A stretch of DNA of 64,000 bases from Nitrospira moscoviensis (GTDB taxonomy: Bacteria; Nitrospirota; Nitrospiria; Nitrospirales; Nitrospiraceae). Of this stretch, positions 1-8,246 are shown one piece after another; the stretch's first letter is position 1; each line of letters begins with the position of its first letter. A program made the position numbers and the translations under genes. Under the pieces are notes generated by a model. It saw only the letters and a list, made by a program, of their open reading frames with translations, did no database searches and was not told where the DNA came from. The stretch spans positions 1,776,001-1,840,000 of the forward strand of contig NZ_CP011801.1 of assembly GCF_001273775.1 (NCBI RefSeq), read 5' to 3'.

Positions 1-1
1 G

Positions 2-862
2 GCCATCGTCCAAGTCAGCGGCGGTCTCACGATTAGAGACTTGGCTCGTCGGATCGTCGAATCGCTTGATCCTGACAAGTATCCCCCCTCGCCCCTTGCG
101 GGAGAGGGCAGGGGTGAGGGGGGTTCCAAACGAGCCCGTCAAGAAGCAGCCAAGCCGTTCCAAGACCCGAAGCTGCGCGAATTGCTCATCGACATCAAGA
201 AGAAGAACGAACTCGTCATCGACCACGTGAGCCAGGATCAAGTCATCGAAGCAGGCTTCAGCGCCGAGGCGTTGGCTCGCGCCAGGACCATCGTGCAGTC
301 GTTCGAACAGTTCATCAAGCAGCACAAGGACGAGATCACCGCACTGCAAGTCCTCTACAGCAAGCCCTACAAACAGCGCCTCACGTTCGAGAACATCAAG
401 GAACTGGCCGACGCCATCGAGAAACCGCCCTATCTCTGGAATGAATCCCAACTCTGGCAAGCCTACGCGGCGCTGGAGAAGTCGAAGGTCAAAGGCGCAA
501 GCGGCAAACGCATCCTGACGGACCTGGTTTCGCTCGTCCGCTTCGCCATCCACCAGGACAACGAGCTGGTGCCGTTTCCCGAGCGGGTCAACGCCAACTT
601 CAATGCCTGGCTCGCTCAGCAACAAAGCATTCCTTCGCCCCTCATGGGAGAGGGCAAGGGTGAGGGGCTGCGGTTCACCCAGGAACAAATCCATTGGCTC
701 GAAATGATCCGCGATCACGTCGCCGCGAACCTCGCCATAGGCCCGGACGATTTCGAGTACGCGCCGTTTGCCCAAGAAGGCGGATTGGGCAAGGCCCATC
801 GATTGTTTCCAGAAGGCCTGCAGCCCATAATAGATGCGCTGAACGTGGCCCTGGTGGCCTAA
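2..862 (+). CDS. hsdR: Type I restriction enzyme R subunit, C-terminal part (5' end outside window)
   Basis: C-terminal part of HsdR, the ATP-dependent translocase/endonuclease subunit of a type I restriction-modification complex. The frame is open to the left edge, so the gene starts outside the window and the TTG at 41 is not its real start. About 286 residues are visible. They match the helical C-terminal region of the family, so the motor and nuclease domains are off-window. The end carries the family-typical block DDFEYAPF followed by GGLGKAH and a last helix. Two palindromic repeats lie inside the frame, at about residues 28-41 and 211-223, without breaking it. A toxin-antitoxin pair, a second copy of the hsdR end, hsdS and hsdM follow on the same strand. 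Confidence 0.85.
   Translation, partial: AIVQVSGGLTIRDLARRIVESLDPDKYPPSPLAGEGRGEGGSKRARQEAAKPFQDPKLRELLIDIKKKNELVIDHVSQDQVIEAGFSAEALARARTIVQSFEQFIKQHKDEITALQVLYSKPYKQRLTFENIKELADAIEKPPYLWNESQLWQAYAALEKSKVKGASGKRILTDLVSLVRFAIHQDNELVPFPERVNANFNAWLAQQQSIPSPLMGEGKGEGLRFTQEQIHWLEMIRDHVAANLAIGPDDFEYAPFAQEGGLGKAHRLFPEGLQPIIDALNVALVA
83..124. repeat. Palindromic repeat inserted in frame in hsdR (copy 1)
   Basis: A GC-rich imperfect inverted repeat: CCCCCTCGCCCC on the left is answered by GGGGTGAGGGGG on the right, around a centre reading TTGCGGGAGAGGGC. It is translated inside hsdR as PPSPLAGEGRGEGG, a low-complexity insert unlike the flanking helices. A second copy lies at 632-667. Confidence 0.75.
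632..667. repeat. Palindromic repeat inserted in frame in hsdR (copy 2)
   Basis: Same element and orientation as the copy at 83-124, with arms CCTTCGCCCCTC and AAGGGTGAGGGG and the shared core GGGAGAGGGCA. It is translated as IPSPLMGEGKGEG. Both copies use the same reading frame, so each inserts nearly the same peptide. Confidence 0.75.
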
Positions 863-1517: not shown

Positions 1518-1676
1518 ATGCCTGCGAACACGTCGCAGGCGAATCTCAGCATCGAGAAGGACGACTTTGAGCTGGCGCCGTTTAGTCGAGAAGGTGGGTT
1601 AGGGAAGGTGCATCAGGTCTTTGGGGGTGAGTTGAACAGGATTATTGATGAGTTGAACGGGGTACTGGCTGCATGA
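1518..1676 (+). pseudogene. hsdR: Second copy of the hsdR 3' end (remnant)
   Basis: A 52-codon open stretch with IEKDDFELAPFSREGGLGK near its middle and ending in IIDELNGVLAA. It aligns residue by residue with the end of the upstream hsdR (DDFEYAPFAQEGGLGK ... IIDALNVALVA) but is diverged at DNA level, so it is a different allele and not a recent copy. Its TGA overlaps the hsdS ATG, the coupling expected at an original hsdR-hsdS junction. The rest of that hsdR is absent. The toxin-antitoxin pair lies between the two tails. Confidence 0.75.
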
Positions 1677-3025
1677 CGAAAACATTAGAAGATATCTTTG
1701 AGCCCGCAATACCCATTGTGCCTGCGGGCTGGGATGTTTTGCCCTTTGAACAAGCTGCAGATGTAGTTTCCGACAAGGGCAAGCGAATTAAACAGGGGTC
1801 GTACCTGCCAGCCGGCGCGATTCCAATAATCGATCAAGGACAGGAGCCTATCGGAGGCTACACGAATGATCAGGACTTGGCTTATGAGGGTGGGCTGCCT
1901 GTTATTCTTTTTGGCGACCATACGCGATCGGTCAAGTACGTTGATAGGCGGTTTGCTGTTGGAGCCGAAGGTGTAAAGATTCTGAGGCCAAATGACGCCT
2001 ATGTTCCCAAGTTTTTTTACTACTTGCTTCGCTCGCTACAGATTCCGAGCCGAGGCTATAGCAGGCACTTTCAGTTTTTAAGAAAGTTTCATTTCCCACT
2101 TGCTCCATATAACCAACAGACCGCCATCGTCGCGGAGATTGAAAAGCAATTCTCCCGCCTCGACGAAGCCGTCGCCTCGCTCAAGCGCACCAAGGCCAGC
2201 CTCAAGCGTTACAAAGCCGCCGTCCTCAAAGCCGCCGTCGAAGGAAAACTGACCGAAGGCTGGCGCAAGCAGCATCCGGATGTCGAATCTGCCAGCAAAC
2301 TGCTCGAACGTATCCAGGCCGAACGTCGGACTAAGTGGAACGGCAGAGCAAAATATCAAGAGCCAGAGAAACCGGACGCCAGCAGGCTGGCTACTCTTCC
2401 GGAGGGATGGGTATGGACCAACATAGATCAACTCGCAGAGGTAGGAACGGGCGCCACGCCGAAGCGAGGCAAGGCGACGTATTACAGTGGTGGCCACATT
2501 CCATGGGTGACAAGTTCAGCTTTGAACAAAGAGCATGTAGACAAAGCCGATGAGTTTGTGACTGACACAGCCCTTAGAGAGACAAACCTTAGTCTCTATC
2601 CGCCTGGAACGCTCCTTCTTGCGATGTACGGCGAAGGAAGAACACGGGGGAAATGTTCTGTGTTGCGCATTCATGCAACCACCAACCAAGCCATTGCCGC
2701 CATCCAGTGTGCTGGCGAGATTCGGGATTACCTCAAGTTAGCAATCTGGAATCAATACGAAGATCTCAGACGGACCGCTTCCGGCGGGGTGCAGCCCAAT
2801 CTTAACTTGAGCCTCGTACGGGCCATTACGATTCCGGTCCCCCCTCTTTCAGAGCAAGTGCATATTGTTGCTGAAGTCGAGCGCCGCCTGTCCGTCATTG
2901 ACGAACTCGAAGGCACCGTCGAAGCCAACCTCACCCGCGCTGAACGCTTGAAGCAGAGTGTTCTCGCAAATGCTTTTTCCGGCAAGACTGGGTCATCCAA
3001 CTTGGTCAGAGAGATTAAGGAATGA
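1673..3025 (+). CDS. hsdS: Type I restriction-modification specificity subunit
   Basis: HsdS, 450 residues, the DNA-recognition subunit that directs both methylation and cleavage. The architecture is complete: target-recognition domain 1 at about 15-150, a conserved helical spacer at about 155-215 (AEIEKQFSRLDEAVASLKR), target-recognition domain 2 beginning LPEGWVWT at about 240-400, and a second conserved helix at about 400-435 (AEVERRLSVIDELEG). The two recognition domains differ, so a bipartite asymmetric target is expected. Base use changes sharply along the gene: the recognition domains are AT-richer than the helical spacers, which fits domain shuffling. The ATG overlaps the stop of the hsdR remnant, and the gene's own stop overlaps the next start. 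Confidence 0.9.
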   Translation: MTKTLEDIFEPAIPIVPAGWDVLPFEQAADVVSDKGKRIKQGSYLPAGAIPIIDQGQEPIGGYTNDQDLAYEGGLPVILFGDHTRSVKYVDRRFAVGAEGVKILRPNDAYVPKFFYYLLRSLQIPSRGYSRHFQFLRKFHFPLAPYNQQTAIVAEIEKQFSRLDEAVASLKRTKASLKRYKAAVLKAAVEGKLTEGWRKQHPDVESASKLLERIQAERRTKWNGRAKYQEPEKPDASRLATLPEGWVWTNIDQLAEVGTGATPKRGKATYYSGGHIPWVTSSALNKEHVDKADEFVTDTALRETNLSLYPPGTLLLAMYGEGRTRGKCSVLRIHATTNQAIAAIQCAGEIRDYLKLAIWNQYEDLRRTASGGVQPNLNLSLVRAITIPVPPLSEQVHIVAEVERRLSVIDELEGTVEANLTRAERLKQSVLANAFSGKTGSSNLVREIKE

Positions 3026-4890
3026 AGCTGGCAAGGTTAAGAATTCGAAACTTTCGTTGCTACAAGGATGAGATCGCCTTTGATTTTGATCAGCTGACGG
3101 CCTTTATTGGCAGGAATGACGTTGGCAAGTCGACGGTTATGGATGCCCTCGATATATTCCTAAACGATGGTGCGCCTGATAAGAATGATGCAAGCAAGAG
3201 CGGCGACGCGAAAGACCTGACAATTATCTGTGAATTCAGTGATCTCCCTACTGCTGCTGTTATTGATGAAGACTTTCCCACGACATTTGAAGCTGAGTAC
3301 CTACTTAACGCCGAAGGGCGATTAGAGATCCATAAGACATATAGCGGCCATACCGCTACTCCTAAATGCGTTAGCATTGGTGCGTTTGCTATTCATCCAA
3401 CCGCTGACATAGCTTCGGATTTACTACAGCTAAAGAACCCAGAACTTAAACAGCGAGCGAAGGAACTGAAAATCAGCCTGGACGGGATTGATCTGAAGAT
3501 AAATGCTCAATTGCGGCAGCGAATTCGGGAAGCAATCGGCGATCTGAAGCTTCAGCCGTCATTTGTTCCTCTGCATGAAGAGAATGCTAAAAAAGCGTGG
3601 GAAGGCATAAGGGCACACATGCCGGTATTTGCGCTATTCAAATCAGATAGAGCAAGTACCGACCAAGATCCTGAGGCGCAAGATCCGTTGAAGGCTGCTG
3701 TGAAGGAGGCTATCAAGGAGAAAGAGCATGAATTAAATGCCATCGTGACCCACGTTGAGACAGAAGTGAGGAGAATAGCGCAAAAGACTCTGGAAAAGCT
3801 AAGGGAAATGGACTCGAGTTTGGCGCAGAAGCTGACTGCCCAGTTTACGGCCCCAAAATGGGAGTCACTGTTCAAGGCAACCATTGCTGGGGACGACGAC
3901 ATTCCCATTAACAAGCGAGGAAGTGGTGTAAAGCGCCTAATTCTTTTAAATTTCTTCCGCGCAAAGGCTGAGATGCAGGGGAGAGAAAGAGACGGTGCCC
4001 CCATAATTTACGCCATCGAAGAACCTGAGACGAGCCAACACCCGCACAATCAGCGCATGTTAGTCAGTGCCTTGATGGATTTGGCCACTCAGAACCAAGT
4101 TATCATAACGACACACACGCCAATGCTCGCAAGGACGTTGCAGGATAGCTGTCTTCGCTACATTCACCAAAATGCAGACAAAACACGAGAGGTGCGTCGA
4201 GGTGGGCAAGATACTAATAAGGTGTTTGCTAATTCGTTAGGGGTTCTTCCAGATAACTCGATCAAGCTTTTTGTTGGAGTCGAAGGAAGACACGACATAA
4301 CTTTTCTTAAGCACCTGTCGAAGATCCTAAGATCCGCAGGTGTCAATGTCTTAGATCTGGAAGGCATGGAGCTTTCAGGCGAGTTAATCTTTTTCCCGCT
4401 GGGTGGATCATCCTTGGCATTGTGGACATCTCGCTTGGAACCGCTAGCGCGACCTGAATTTCACCTATTTGACCGTGATACTCAGCCGCCAGCAGCCGCG
4501 CGGTATCAAGCCGAAGCGAGTGCGGTCAACTTACGGGACAGGTGTAAGGCACTCATCACGGCAAAGAAGGAAATGGAAAATTATTTGCATTTTGAAGCGA
4601 TAAACGAAGCGTACTCTCAGTTCGGTATTGCCTTAGGTCTGACATCTAACTTTGGGGATTTCGATGATGTGCCTGCTTCGGTTGCCCAGAAGGTACATGC
4701 ACTTAACGGCAGTCAGAAGTTATGGGCCCAGTTGGATGACAACACACGCAAGAGAAAGATCTCCCAGGCGAAGGTCCATCTAAATGACCTTGCAGCCTCC
4801 CTTATGACAAAGTCACGTTTAGATCAAATTGATTCTGACGGAGACGTTATGGGTTGGTTTTCAGAAATGAAGAGGTTATCGAGTGTCTAG
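3022..4890 (+). CDS. OLD-family ATP-dependent nuclease (ABC-ATPase plus TOPRIM)
   Basis: A 622-residue protein with an N-terminal SMC/RecF-like ATPase: Walker A GRNDVGKST at about 30-38, a coiled stretch near 230-270, and Walker B YAIEEPETSQHP near 330. A C-terminal TOPRIM domain follows, with FVGVEGRHD near 416, FHLFDRD near 483 and KKEMENYL near 512. This is the layout of OLD nucleases and of single-chain relatives of the PARIS and Gabija ATPase/nuclease systems. The gene overlaps hsdS by 4 bases and hsdM by 8 bases, so it is translated as part of the hsd operon. Its base use is clearly more AT-rich than hsdM, which suggests separate acquisition. A role in anti-phage defence together with the restriction system is inference. 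Confidence 0.85.
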   Translation: MKLARLRIRNFRCYKDEIAFDFDQLTAFIGRNDVGKSTVMDALDIFLNDGAPDKNDASKSGDAKDLTIICEFSDLPTAAVIDEDFPTTFEAEYLLNAEGRLEIHKTYSGHTATPKCVSIGAFAIHPTADIASDLLQLKNPELKQRAKELKISLDGIDLKINAQLRQRIREAIGDLKLQPSFVPLHEENAKKAWEGIRAHMPVFALFKSDRASTDQDPEAQDPLKAAVKEAIKEKEHELNAIVTHVETEVRRIAQKTLEKLREMDSSLAQKLTAQFTAPKWESLFKATIAGDDDIPINKRGSGVKRLILLNFFRAKAEMQGRERDGAPIIYAIEEPETSQHPHNQRMLVSALMDLATQNQVIITTHTPMLARTLQDSCLRYIHQNADKTREVRRGGQDTNKVFANSLGVLPDNSIKLFVGVEGRHDITFLKHLSKILRSAGVNVLDLEGMELSGELIFFPLGGSSLALWTSRLEPLARPEFHLFDRDTQPPAAARYQAEASAVNLRDRCKALITAKKEMENYLHFEAINEAYSQFGIALGLTSNFGDFDDVPASVAQKVHALNGSQKLWAQLDDNTRKRKISQAKVHLNDLAASLMTKSRLDQIDSDGDVMGWFSEMKRLSSV

Positions 4891-6388
4891 CAGTGGTATT
4901 CAAATCGTCCAAAAACTTTGGAACTACTGCAGCGTTCTGCGTGACGACGGCATGAGCTACGGCGACTACGTCGAGCAGTTGACGTATTTGCTGTTCCTCA
5001 AGATGGCGGATGAGCGGACGAAGCCGCCGTATAACCAGCCGAGTCCCATTCCTGACAAATATAGTTGGCCGAGCCTGCTCAAGAAGGACGGTGATGAGCT
5101 GTTCGACCACTACCGCCACAGCTTGGAGAGGCTCGGCAACGAGAAGGGTTTGCTCGGACTGATCTTCAACAAGTCGCAGAACAAATTCCAGGACCCCGCC
5201 AAGCTGCGCCGCTTGATCGTGGACCTGATCGACAAGGAAGACTGGTCGGCGATGAGCGCCGACGTGAAGGGCGACGCCTACGAAGGGTTGCTCCAAAAGA
5301 ATGCCGAAGACGTGAAAGGTGGTGCCGGTCAGTACTTCACGCCGCGTCCGTTGATCCAGGCGATGGTGGACTGCGTTGCGCCGAAACCAGGTGACACGAT
5401 CTGTGACCCCGCCTGCGGAACCGGCGGATTTTTGCTCGCGGCGCACGACTATGTGGTGAAGCACAATCCGAATCTAACCAAGGCCGAAAAGAAGAAGCTC
5501 AAGCAGGAAACGTTGAAGGGCTATGAGTTGGTTCAGGGCGTCGTCCGCCTCTGCGCCATGAATCTCTTGCTGCACGGTATCGGCTCACAGGATTTTGAGC
5601 CGGTCGAAGCGGCAGACGCCCTGGCTTCAGATCCGAAGGACCGATTCAACGTCGTGCTGACCAATCCGCCGTTCGGCAAGAAGAGCAGCTACACGGTGGT
5701 CGGGCAGGAGGGTGAGGTCTCCAAGGAGCGTGAGACTTACGAGCGGGACGACTTCTGGGCGACGACCTCGAACAAGCAGCTCAATTTCGTTCAGCACGTG
5801 AAGACGATTTTGACAGTGAACGGCCGCGCTGCTGTCGTGGTGCCGGACAACGTGCTATTCGAGGGCGGAGCTGGCGAAACGGTCCGCCGAAAGCTGCTGC
5901 ACGACTGCGACGTCCATACGCTGCTCCGCTTGCCGACCGGCCTCTTCTATGCCCAAGGCGTGAAAGCCAACGTTCTGTTCTTCGACAAGAAGCCGGCCAG
6001 CGAAACACCCTGGACCAAGAAACTCTGGATCTACGACCTCCGTACCAACCAACACTTCACCCTCAAGACGAATCCGCTCAAGCGCGAGGACCTCAACGAA
6101 TTCGTGAAATGCTACAACCCGGCCAACCGCCACGACAGGAAAGCCACCTGGTCCGAAAAGAAACCAGACGGCCGCTGGCGCGCCTACCCCTACGATGAGC
6201 TAGTCGCTCGCGACAAAGCCAGCCTCGACATCTTCTGGCTCAAAGACGAATCCCTCGAAGCCTCCGACAACTTGCCCGATCCAGACGTGATCGCGCAGGA
6301 GATCGTCGACGACCTCGAAGCGGCGCTGGAACAGTTCAGACTGATAGCGAACGATCTCGGGCCGGCAGCTACAAACCAAGCGGAATAG
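4883..6388 (+). CDS. hsdM: Type I restriction-modification DNA methyltransferase subunit
   Basis: HsdM, 501 residues, an N6-adenine methyltransferase that pairs with HsdS. It has the N-terminal HsdM helical domain (YVEQLTYLLFLKMADE), the SAM-binding motif DPACGTGGFLLAA near residue 175, and the catalytic motif NPPFGKK near 260. The GTG start lies inside the end of the preceding nuclease gene (8-base overlap), which indicates translational coupling. The C-terminal region, with segments such as LWIYDLRTN and AWRAYPYDELVARDK-like blocks, is full length. With HsdS and the HsdR encoded upstream it would form a complete R-M system. Confidence 0.92.
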   Translation: MSSSGIQIVQKLWNYCSVLRDDGMSYGDYVEQLTYLLFLKMADERTKPPYNQPSPIPDKYSWPSLLKKDGDELFDHYRHSLERLGNEKGLLGLIFNKSQNKFQDPAKLRRLIVDLIDKEDWSAMSADVKGDAYEGLLQKNAEDVKGGAGQYFTPRPLIQAMVDCVAPKPGDTICDPACGTGGFLLAAHDYVVKHNPNLTKAEKKKLKQETLKGYELVQGVVRLCAMNLLLHGIGSQDFEPVEAADALASDPKDRFNVVLTNPPFGKKSSYTVVGQEGEVSKERETYERDDFWATTSNKQLNFVQHVKTILTVNGRAAVVVPDNVLFEGGAGETVRRKLLHDCDVHTLLRLPTGLFYAQGVKANVLFFDKKPASETPWTKKLWIYDLRTNQHFTLKTNPLKREDLNEFVKCYNPANRHDRKATWSEKKPDGRWRAYPYDELVARDKASLDIFWLKDESLEASDNLPDPDVIAQEIVDDLEAALEQFRLIANDLGPAATNQAE

Positions 6389-6428: not shown

Positions 6429-7040
6429 ATGGCTGAATTTATCACGGCACTGTTTACTCACAGCGCAAACTTCATTTCGTGGATATGGGACTCAATCGGC
6501 GATCTCAATGATTTCGTACAAATTGTAGCGATCATCGTCACTGGCATTTGGGGGTATATTTTATTCATTCGTCAAAGACAGAGATATCCGCGAGCAAACC
6601 TAGCGCATCATATTACGCACACGCGTCTTGATGATGGAACGATCGTACTCCATGTTGATGTCACGCTGACGAACGCAGGCCAAGTGCTTTTAAAAATCGT
6701 CAAAGGACAGTTGCGGATTCAATATGTGAAGCCAGCTGGAAGAGATGTCCTCAAAGACGATCCAGGTCCCTTTCCCAGCAACAACGAACGAGAATTTCGG
6801 TGGCCATCAGACGAATGGGAAGAGACCCTCGGGGCATGCGAGGTCGAGCCCGGTGAGAACAACCAGTTTCATTACGACGTCAGATTGAAACAGGCCGTGG
6901 AGGTTGTGAAAGTCTATAGCTACTACAAAAATGAGGTGAAGAAAGGCAGGGACATCGGCTGGAACCTCACGACGCTCTACGACCTCAACGCTGCGCAGCA
7001 ACAAAGGGAGAAATCACTTATCCAGGAGGTGAATCCATGA
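6429..7040 (+). CDS. Membrane-anchored protein of unknown function in the hsd operon
   Basis: 203 residues, no family recognised. One hydrophobic segment at about residues 30-48 (VQIVAIIVTGIWGYILFI) is followed by the basic stretch RQRQRYPR, so the long C-terminal part should face the cytoplasm. That part looks like a beta-rich domain (ILHVDVTLTNAGQVLL, then RIQYVKP). The gene starts 40 bases after hsdM, in the same direction, and is AT-richer than hsdM, so it probably belongs to the same accessory unit as the OLD-like nuclease. Its stop overlaps the start of a 41-codon frame. A membrane-linked accessory role in defence is only a guess from context. Confidence 0.6.
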   Translation: MAEFITALFTHSANFISWIWDSIGDLNDFVQIVAIIVTGIWGYILFIRQRQRYPRANLAHHITHTRLDDGTIVLHVDVTLTNAGQVLLKIVKGQLRIQYVKPAGRDVLKDDPGPFPSNNEREFRWPSDEWEETLGACEVEPGENNQFHYDVRLKQAVEVVKVYSYYKNEVKKGRDIGWNLTTLYDLNAAQQQREKSLIQEVNP

Positions 7041-7308: not shown

Positions 7309-7506
7309 GGCTGCCCTATGATGCGCTTCTTGTTACCTCTTGGCTTGAGTGCAATTGTGCATCATGACTTGGAGTGAGACCACCACGAAATGAGTCTTCC
7401 GCCATCGTCCAAAAGCTTTGGAATGCAAGACTGGGGTCATTTGGGGCACAGATGACCGATGGCTAAGAAATAGAGTACAGTTTCCGCATCCTTCACGAGG
7501 CAATTC

Positions 7507-7851
7507 ATGGCTGAGCGAGTAGCCACTTCCGTTCCCGTTCAAGATTCCATCCGCGAAATGGTGCGGCGGATTGCCGCCCAATTTCACCCCGACAAGATAA
7601 TTCTATTCGGCTCGCACGCGCGAGGCCAGGCAGGTCCCGACAGCGACGTGGACCTCTTGATCGTCATGCCGGTGAAAGGCTCCAAGCGGCGGAAAGCGAC
7701 TGAAATCGACGGCGCGCTCGCGGATAGACGAATTCCCCTGGATCTCATCGTGGTGACTCCAGAAGAGTTTGAACGGGCTCGTCATCAGGTCGGGTCGGTC
7801 TTACGTCCCGCAGCGCTCGAGGGATTGGTCCTGTATGACCGAGCCGCGTGA
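7507..7851 (+). CDS. Minimal nucleotidyltransferase (MNT antitoxin of an MNT/HEPN pair)
   Basis: 114 residues with the minimal nucleotidyltransferase signature: FGSHARGQAGPDSDVDLLIV at about 36-55 supplies the GS motif and two metal-binding aspartates, and a third acidic residue is likely in PLDLIVV. In studied MNT/HEPN pairs such a protein AMPylates and silences the HEPN ribonuclease. The HEPN gene follows with a 17-base overlap but carries a frameshift. The reading frame here is intact. Confidence 0.8.
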   Translation: MAERVATSVPVQDSIREMVRRIAAQFHPDKIILFGSHARGQAGPDSDVDLLIVMPVKGSKRRKATEIDGALADRRIPLDLIVVTPEEFERARHQVGSVLRPAALEGLVLYDRAA

Positions 7852-8246
7852 CGCACTCCAGCAGGTCAGACAGTGGGTTGAAAAGGCAGAACATGATCTG
7901 CGAAACGCGGAACACACCCTCACCATCCGCGACGAAGACTGCCCGTTTGACACCGTCTGTTTTCATGCTCAGCAGTGTGTCGAGAAGTATCTGAAGGGCT
8001 GGCTTGCTTCTCGGCAGCTCGATGCTCCTCGATCCCATGATCTTGTGGTTTTGCTCAATCTCGCGCTGGCCGCTGGGCCTCGGCCTCAGTCCGCACGACG
8101 TGCAACCCCTGAATCGCTACACCATCGAAGCCCGATATCCCGGGGATTGGGACCCGATTGACCGGTCTGAGGCAGAGCAGGCCGTTGCGATGGCTCGCCA
8201 GGTACGAGAGTCGGTGCGGAAATTGTTGCCGCGCGAGGTGCTTTGA
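7835..8246 (+). pseudogene. HEPN-domain protein, frameshifted
   Basis: The gene starts at the ATG at 7835, inside the end of the nucleotidyltransferase gene. The first frame gives a HEPN N-terminal half (VEKAEHDLRNAEHTL, CFHAQQCVEKYLKGWL, SHDLVVLLNLAL). After one extra C near 8078-8079 the HEPN continues in the next frame with GLGLSPHDVQPLNRY, EARYPGDWDPID and an end AVAMARQVRESVRKLLP. Removing one base would restore a protein of about 136 residues. Either the toxin half is inactivated or this is a sequencing error in a GGGCC run. Confidence 0.75.

What the first reader, a model, noticed from the sequence alone, without database searches (positions are those of the whole stretch)
3022..4890. 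OLD-like ATPase/TOPRIM nuclease translated within the hsd operon
A complete OLD-type nuclease overlaps hsdS by 4 bases and hsdM by 8 bases, so it is coupled to both. Its base composition is more AT-rich than hsdM. The arrangement suggests a composite defence system in which restriction and an ATPase-nuclease are co-expressed, possibly with the nuclease acting as back-up when restriction is inhibited, as proposed for PARIS-like systems.
Basis: partly seen in the sequence, partly recalled or inferred. Interest (0 to 1): 0.7.

Follow-up and report, generated by a model that had tools for sequence, protein, structure and literature searches.

The report
OLD nuclease docked in restriction operon
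A gene for an OLD-type ATPase-nuclease sits, co-translated, between the specificity and methylation genes of a bacterial restriction system, and in related bacteria the same spot nearly always holds a gene, usually a different toxin or anti-phage gene, so it looks like a docking site for interchangeable second-line defences.

Summary
Window 3022-4890 encodes a 622-aa OLD-family protein (ABC-type ATPase plus C-terminal TOPRIM) overlapping hsdS by 4 nt and hsdM by 8 nt. The arrangement is not unique: a Verrucomicrobia genome has hsdS-OLD-nSTAND3-hsdM with the same 4-nt overlap, and a separate OLD lineage lies in M-OLD-S-R order in other type I operons. About half of genome-derived relatives (14 of 30) sit in or beside type I, II or III restriction loci; the rest do not, so the protein can exist without restriction genes. 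The larger result is the slot itself: in 43 of 51 relatives with hsdS-hsdM order the junction carries cargo (OLD, OLD-like, Septu, DarTG, Fic, GmrSD, Schlafen-like, STAND, unknowns). Cargo is more AT-rich than hsdR and hsdM. Truncated hsdM 5' ends in the slot, and hsdR 3' ends before hsdS, look like scars of cargo turnover; the window has both kinds. Best reading: an exchangeable, co-expressed back-up effector. That restriction inhibition is the trigger is untested, and it is not PARIS. Defence genes embedded in type I operons are already published, so this is a new variant of a known kind.

The parts
1..862 (+). 3' part of hsdR (type I restriction subunit; gene begins upstream of the window)
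   Evidence: EcoEI_R_C Pfam match; continuous ORF in L004
973..1203 (+). antitoxin-like gene (Unstab_antitox), in the hsdR-hsdS junction
   Evidence: PF09720, 54 bits
1203..1496 (+). ParE/RelE-type toxin gene, in the hsdR-hsdS junction
   Evidence: PF05016; 90% identical in the same place in L129
1542..1676 (+). remnant of an hsdR 3' end (ends ...LNGVLAA*), overlapping the hsdS start by ATGA: probable recombination scar
   Evidence: direct repeat of own hsdR 3' end, E 2e-6; collinear with hsdR-hsdS of L131 at 79%; translation
1673..3025 (+). hsdS, specificity subunit (450 aa)
   Evidence: Methylase_S; PADLOC Specificity_I
3022..4890 (+). OLD-family ATPase-TOPRIM protein (622 aa): Walker A GRNDVGKS 30-37, signature RGSGVKR 299-305, Walker B IYAIEEPE 329-336, H365, TOPRIM residues E421, D425, D484, D486, E519
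4883..6388 (+). hsdM, N6-adenine methyltransferase subunit (501 aa, GTG start)
   Evidence: PF02384/PF12161
6429..7040 (+). 203-aa gene of unknown function just after hsdM, 48% GC; possible former or satellite cargo
   Evidence: no Pfam, PADLOC or NCBIfam match; GC
7389..7424 (+). remnant of an hsdM 5' end (CATCGTCCAAAAGCTTTGGAAT): probable recombination scar
   Evidence: 92% identical to the hsdM 5' end of L129; extends to 7336-7424 at 86% against L132

Best explanation
The gene is a second-line, probably abortive anti-phage effector of the OLD family. It is carried as exchangeable cargo in a docking site between hsdS and hsdM of a type I restriction-modification operon, and it is laid out to be made together with the restriction enzyme through overlapping stop and start codons. 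Inferred action: the ATPase part (SMC/OLD-type ABC fold) senses an abnormal DNA or infection state, and the TOPRIM part then cuts nucleic acid, so that a phage that gets past methylation-based restriction meets a second barrier. Restriction inhibition is one plausible trigger among several. Shown here: gene, domains, overlaps, recurrence, slot occupancy and truncated repeats that look like recombination scars. Inferred: expression, nuclease activity, phage defence, trigger.
For: ATPase and TOPRIM motifs conserved across 19 aligned sequences, 38-72% identical to the window protein. Fold matches to GajA and Thermus OLD along the whole chain and to OLD/AriB/GajA TOPRIM domains. Conserved E421, D425, D484, D486 and E519 correspond by motif order to the TsOLD metal ligands E377, D381, D431, D433 and E480 (PMC7049728). 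Overlaps at both ends; same hsdS overlap in L035. 14 of 30 genome-derived OLD loci are linked to restriction genes of three types. Slot occupied in 43 of 51 relatives, with the first cargo gene within about 20 nt of the hsdS stop in 19 of the first 31 occupied loci. Cargo is often a known defence or toxin gene. Cargo GC3 below hsdM in 23 of 24 loci, p=2e-7. All 13 hsdM pieces found in slots are 5' ends. Published precedents: DarTG2 (PMC12255303), TgvAB (PMC11411939), OLD/TOPRIM in BREX loci (PMC12839542), PrrC (PMC12707154).
Against: No expression, nuclease or phage data. About half of the relatives stand without restriction genes nearby, for example on IncHI2 plasmids, so strict dependence on hsd is unlikely. 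OLD between hsdS and hsdM in this gene order was seen only twice. Cargo moves independently of hsdS: DarTG 95-98% identical while HsdS is 36-40%, which argues against a matched protein-protein partnership.
Confidence: 0.6

Rival explanations
1. True guard: OLD directly or indirectly monitors the HsdRMS enzyme and fires when a phage anti-restriction protein (Ocr/ArdA/Stp-like) inhibits it, as PrrC does in EcoprrI.
For: Same type of embedding as prrC (PMC12707154); many slot cargoes are suicide-type toxins; co-translation layout.
Against: Relatives sit with type II and III systems or with no restriction genes; slot cargo is unrelated from genome to genome and not matched to hsdS; some cargoes (DarTG) bring their own antitoxin and hence probably their own trigger.
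Confidence: 0.25
2. Independent passenger: a self-sufficient OLD defence gene that uses the hsd operon only as a landing and expression site, with a complementary but separate target range (as TgvAB does).
For: Stand-alone relatives are common; TgvAB protection was unaffected by inactivating restriction (PMC11411939); E. coli YbjD, a lone OLD, gives anti-phage phenotypes (PMC13261556); scars indicate cargo turnover.
Against: Tight overlap at both ends and repeated, phylogenetically separate arrival at S/M junctions suggest that co-expression is selected.
Confidence: 0.4
3. Finisher nuclease: OLD degrades DNA ends made by HsdR cleavage.
For: TsOLD is a metal-dependent nuclease that degrades linear DNA (PMC7049728); P2 Old kills recBC cells, i.e. 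it acts when RecBCD is absent (PMC10568477).
Against: Many slot cargoes are not DNases (Fic, DarT, RelA/SpoT), so the slot is not a DNA-processing site; no direct evidence.
Confidence: 0.12
4. Chance insertion without function.
For: Low GC and scars fit recent horizontal arrival.
Against: Intact reading frame and catalytic motifs; recurrence; occupied slot in 43 of 51 relatives.
Confidence: 0.05

Closest known systems
Class 1 OLD nucleases (P2 Old, Thermus scotoductus OLD, E. coli YbjD)
   Same: Single protein with ABC ATPase and C-terminal TOPRIM; no GajB helicase or reverse transcriptase partner; best sequence match in the PDB (76 bits)
   Different: Published Class 1 OLD genes are described as isolated and not near defence genes (PMC10568477); this one is inside a restriction operon
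Gabija GajA (Class 2 OLD)
   Same: Top Foldseek match over the whole chain
   Different: No UvrD-like GajB next to it; weaker sequence match (52 bits)
PARIS (AriA/AriB)
   Same: OLD-type ATPase with TOPRIM nuclease; AriB fold Z 9.0; proposed back-up to restriction
   Different: One protein, not split; AriA matches at only 25 bits; no DUF4435 match; trigger unknown
PrrC in EcoprrI
   Same: Accessory nuclease gene embedded in a type I operon
   Different: Anticodon RNase, not an OLD/TOPRIM protein
DarTG2 in the EPEC type I island (PMC12255303) and TgvAB in Vibrio cholerae VPI-2 (PMC11411939)
   Same: Whole defence modules embedded in type I operons; recombination hotspot suggested for the first
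   Different: DarTG2 lies between hsdS and hsdR, not hsdS and hsdM; different effectors; no scar analysis in the passages read
OLD-ABC/TOPRIM back-up effectors of BREX (PMC12839542)
   Same: OLD-TOPRIM modules inside a methylation-based defence locus, proposed as back-up effectors
   Different: BREX, not type I restriction

Membership tests
OLD family (broad) | N-terminal ABC-type ATPase with Walker A, signature, Walker B and H-loop | tested here: met
   AAA_15 240 bits; motifs; SMC/OLD fold
OLD family (broad) | C-terminal TOPRIM domain with conserved acidic metal ligands | tested here: met
   Domain model Z 9.4-10.4 to OLD C-termini; E421, D425, D484, D486, E519 conserved; equivalence to TsOLD ligands inferred from motif order
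Class 1 OLD | No partner helicase or reverse transcriptase | tested here: met
   Neighbours are hsdS and hsdM
Class 1 OLD | Single isolated gene, not near other defence genes (PMC10568477) | tested here: not met
   Overlaps hsdS and hsdM
Gabija | GajB UvrD-like helicase adjacent | tested here: not met
   No helicase next to the gene; such a pair is seen in L147 instead
PARIS | AriA ATPase recognisable by sequence | tested here: inconclusive
   PDB AriA at 25 bits only; PADLOC AriA hit of 203 bits, but the lengths of its two AriA models (373, 304) suggest they are the general AAA_15 and AAA_21 profiles
PARIS | AriB/DUF4435 nuclease | tested here: not met
   No DUF4435 match; fold resembles AriB, but OLD domains score as well or higher
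PARIS | Triggered by Ocr, cleaves tRNA | not testable with these tools
   needs experiment
PrrC/RloC guard systems | Embedded in a type I operon | tested here: met
PrrC/RloC guard systems | Anticodon nuclease domain | tested here: not met
   C-terminus is TOPRIM
Defence genes embedded in type I operons | Foreign defence gene between hsd genes, same strand, layout for co-expression | tested here: met

The most novel reading that the evidence does not exclude
The hsdS-hsdM junction of this widespread type I family is a dedicated cargo dock: unrelated suicide or back-up effectors are swapped in by recombination anchored on the hsdM 5' end (and hsdR 3' end), are translated with hsdS, and use the restriction enzyme's fate as a common trigger, so that one sensor serves many interchangeable effectors.
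Probability: 0.2. Interest if true: 0.8.

Novelty: new variant of a known kind. Interest (0 to 1): 0.55.

Why it matters
Embedding of defence genes in type I operons has been reported mostly as single cases. Here one junction of one type I family is occupied in most sampled genomes by different effectors, with sequence scars that suggest how cargo is exchanged. That gives a way to find uncharacterised anti-phage genes (several cargoes of 450-880 aa matched no Pfam family) and a set of natural operons, with similar hsdR/hsdM and different effectors, for asking whether restriction inhibition triggers them. It also places an OLD protein of the lone, Class-1 type in a defence context, where the literature calls such genes isolated.

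Tried and rejected
PARIS membership from the PADLOC AriA hit: not accepted, because the two AriA models have the lengths of the general Pfam AAA_15 and AAA_21 profiles and real AriA matches weakly. A model in which hsdS and cargo travel as one block: suggested by equal low GC3, but rejected because cargo 95-98% identical goes with HsdS of 36-40%. The residual GC correlation was not used, as both terms share hsdM. Foldseek TM-scores of the full model are low (0.3-0.4) because domain packing is uncertain (pTM 0.56), so the C-terminus was folded alone. Four of the 25 genome loci (L056-L059) matched only the N-terminus and were left out of the tree. Phage records gave one partial match. The TsOLD positions were mapped by motif order, not by a residue-level structural alignment. 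No library of accessory genes of type I operons was found in the papers held beyond those cited.

Full report
OBSERVATION. The ORF at 3022-4890 is real and complete. It starts inside the hsdS stop (ATGA, 4 nt) and ends 8 nt into a GTG-started hsdM that has AGAGG at good spacing. AlphaFold of the window protein with 18 relatives gave a good model (pLDDT 84); Foldseek's best full-length matches are GajA and Thermus scotoductus OLD. The C-terminal 247 residues folded alone (pLDDT 90) match OLD C-terminal domains (Z 9.4-10.4), AriB (9.0) and GajA (8.4), well above unrelated folds (about 5.5). Conserved acidic residues E421, D425, D484, D486 and E519 follow the order of the TsOLD metal ligands (PMC7049728). 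GC and GC3 are far below hsdR and hsdM.

RELATIVES OF THE OLD PROTEIN. Searches of 296 genomes of the phylum, of GTDB species genomes, of plasmids and of viral contigs gave about 50 full-length relatives. The window lies in a 4.6-Mb genome; one relative found both ways is recorded as Nitrospira japonica (L043, the same contig as L064), so the phylum is Nitrospirota. Of 30 genome-derived loci, 14 are linked to restriction genes: type I (window, L035, L052, L066; L037 on a weak hsdR fragment), type III (L041, L042, L043, L045, L054, L063), and type II or similar (L036 BsuBI/PstI enzyme, L050 HpaII with C5 methylase, L038 Eco57I-type methylase). The others, and the IncHI2 plasmid copies, show no restriction genes next to them in the stretches read. 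On the tree type I linkage needs at least four changes, with window/L035/L037 apart from L052/L066. L052 and L066 have the opposite order hsdM-OLD-hsdS-hsdR, so OLD has reached the S/M junction more than once.

THE SLOT. Searching with HsdM instead and reading the operons showed that relatives with order hsdR-hsdS-hsdM usually have something between hsdS and hsdM: 31 of 35 loci in the first set (Nitrospirota, the phylum of L035, and single loci from others) and 12 of 16 in the second (drawn from the phyla of L039 and L045), counting L199 as empty by eye. Cargo named by Pfam or PADLOC or by similarity to named cargo: OLD (window; L035, there with nSTAND3), an OLD-like protein 25% identical (L131), an ATPase-TOPRIM-like protein (L157), Septu PtuAB (L156), DarTG (L130, L135, L137, L140, L151), a GmrSD-type protein with a RelA/SpoT protein (L139), Fic (L143 with DUF6880; L177), RmrA-like (L152), Schlafen-like or HATPase proteins (L153, L173), STAND with a weak Cap4-nuclease match (L158), small gene pairs, and several unknowns (L134/L144, L136, L150, L163). 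L146 (AbiEii, Fic) and L164 (GmrSD) show similar genes just before hsdM, but hsdS was not found there and they are not in the counts. In 19 of 31 occupied loci of the first set the first cargo gene starts within about 20 nt of the hsdS stop.

TURNOVER. Backbone proteins are conserved while the cargo differs: window and L131 share HsdM 87%, HsdR 83%, HsdS 55%, but their cargo proteins are 25% identical. Cargo GC3 is lower than hsdM in 23 of 24 loci (p=2e-7); hsdS GC3 is lower than hsdM in 20 of 20. Self-comparison of the loci found partial copies of hsdM in 11 of 52, nearly all 5' ends upstream of hsdM, and of hsdR in 7 of 37, six of them 3' ends between hsdR and hsdS; hsdS 1 of 40, other genes 12 of 229. 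All 13 HsdM pieces found within slots by tblastn are from the first 48 codons. The window carries an hsdR 3' remnant at 1542-1676, which keeps an ATGA overlap with hsdS behind an inserted Unstab_antitox/ParE pair, and a short hsdM 5' remnant at about 7389-7424. I read these as scars of recombination anchored on hsdM and hsdR; the recombination itself is inferred. Cargo and hsdS do not move as a unit: DarTG 95-98% identical occurs with HsdS 36-40% identical.

MECHANISM. Most likely a co-expressed second-line effector; the trigger is not known. Precedents for embedding: PrrC activated on inhibition of EcoprrI (PMC12707154), DarTG2 between hsdS and hsdR in EPEC with the site called a potential hotspot (PMC12255303), TgvAB which protects without restriction activity (PMC11411939), OLD/TOPRIM modules as back-up effectors in BREX (PMC12839542). 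PrrC supports a guard; TgvAB supports an independent passenger. The stand-alone relatives and the exchangeable cargoes make me favour a module that works on its own but gains from co-expression. The rivals 'guard' and 'passenger' are special cases of the best explanation that differ in the trigger, so their confidences are not exclusive of it.

LIMITS. Operon genes were called with a simple ORF finder and profiles built here; occupancy counts refer only to close HsdM relatives (about 54-94% identity) and largely to draft genomes; no matched census of other type I families was made (three R-M-S operons, L181-L183, have no cargo between M and S). Nothing about expression or activity was tested.

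Noticed in passing
window 7507-8246: By eye, ORF 7507-7851 looks like an MNT-type nucleotidyltransferase and the overlapping ORFs after it like a HEPN protein, i.e. a possible MNT-HEPN toxin-antitoxin pair just after the hsd operon.
   Followed up: no
window 6429-7040: 203-aa, AT-rich gene after hsdM with a hydrophobic N-terminus and no family match.
   Followed up: partly
L043, L045, L063, L041, L042: Recurrent cluster in several phyla: SNF2-type helicase, DUF2130, OLD, type III Mod and Res, sometimes a Schlafen-like protein, BRO-N or subtilase; may be a composite type III system.
   Followed up: partly
L035, L039, L108-L110; weakly L112 and L115: OLD paired with an nSTAND3 NTPase next door.
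   Followed up: partly
L066 4811-11742: One type I operon with two cargoes: OLD between hsdM and hsdS, and a DarT-size gene plus a macro-domain protein between hsdS and hsdR.
   Followed up: partly
L147: Gabija-like OLD plus UvrD helicase directly beside an hsdM fragment.
   Followed up: no
L137, L132: Several hsdM 5' remnants spaced about 0.6-1 kb apart in one slot, like layers of past cargo.
   Followed up: partly
L057, L058: Vibrio-type type I operons with an AAA_15 ATPase plus an HNH protein (Septu-like) between hsdS and hsdR.
   Followed up: partly
L074 (IncHI2 plasmids): A 36%-identical OLD protein is carried by many enterobacterial plasmids between a Tn7-like element and the sil genes, with no restriction genes next to it.
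   Followed up: partly
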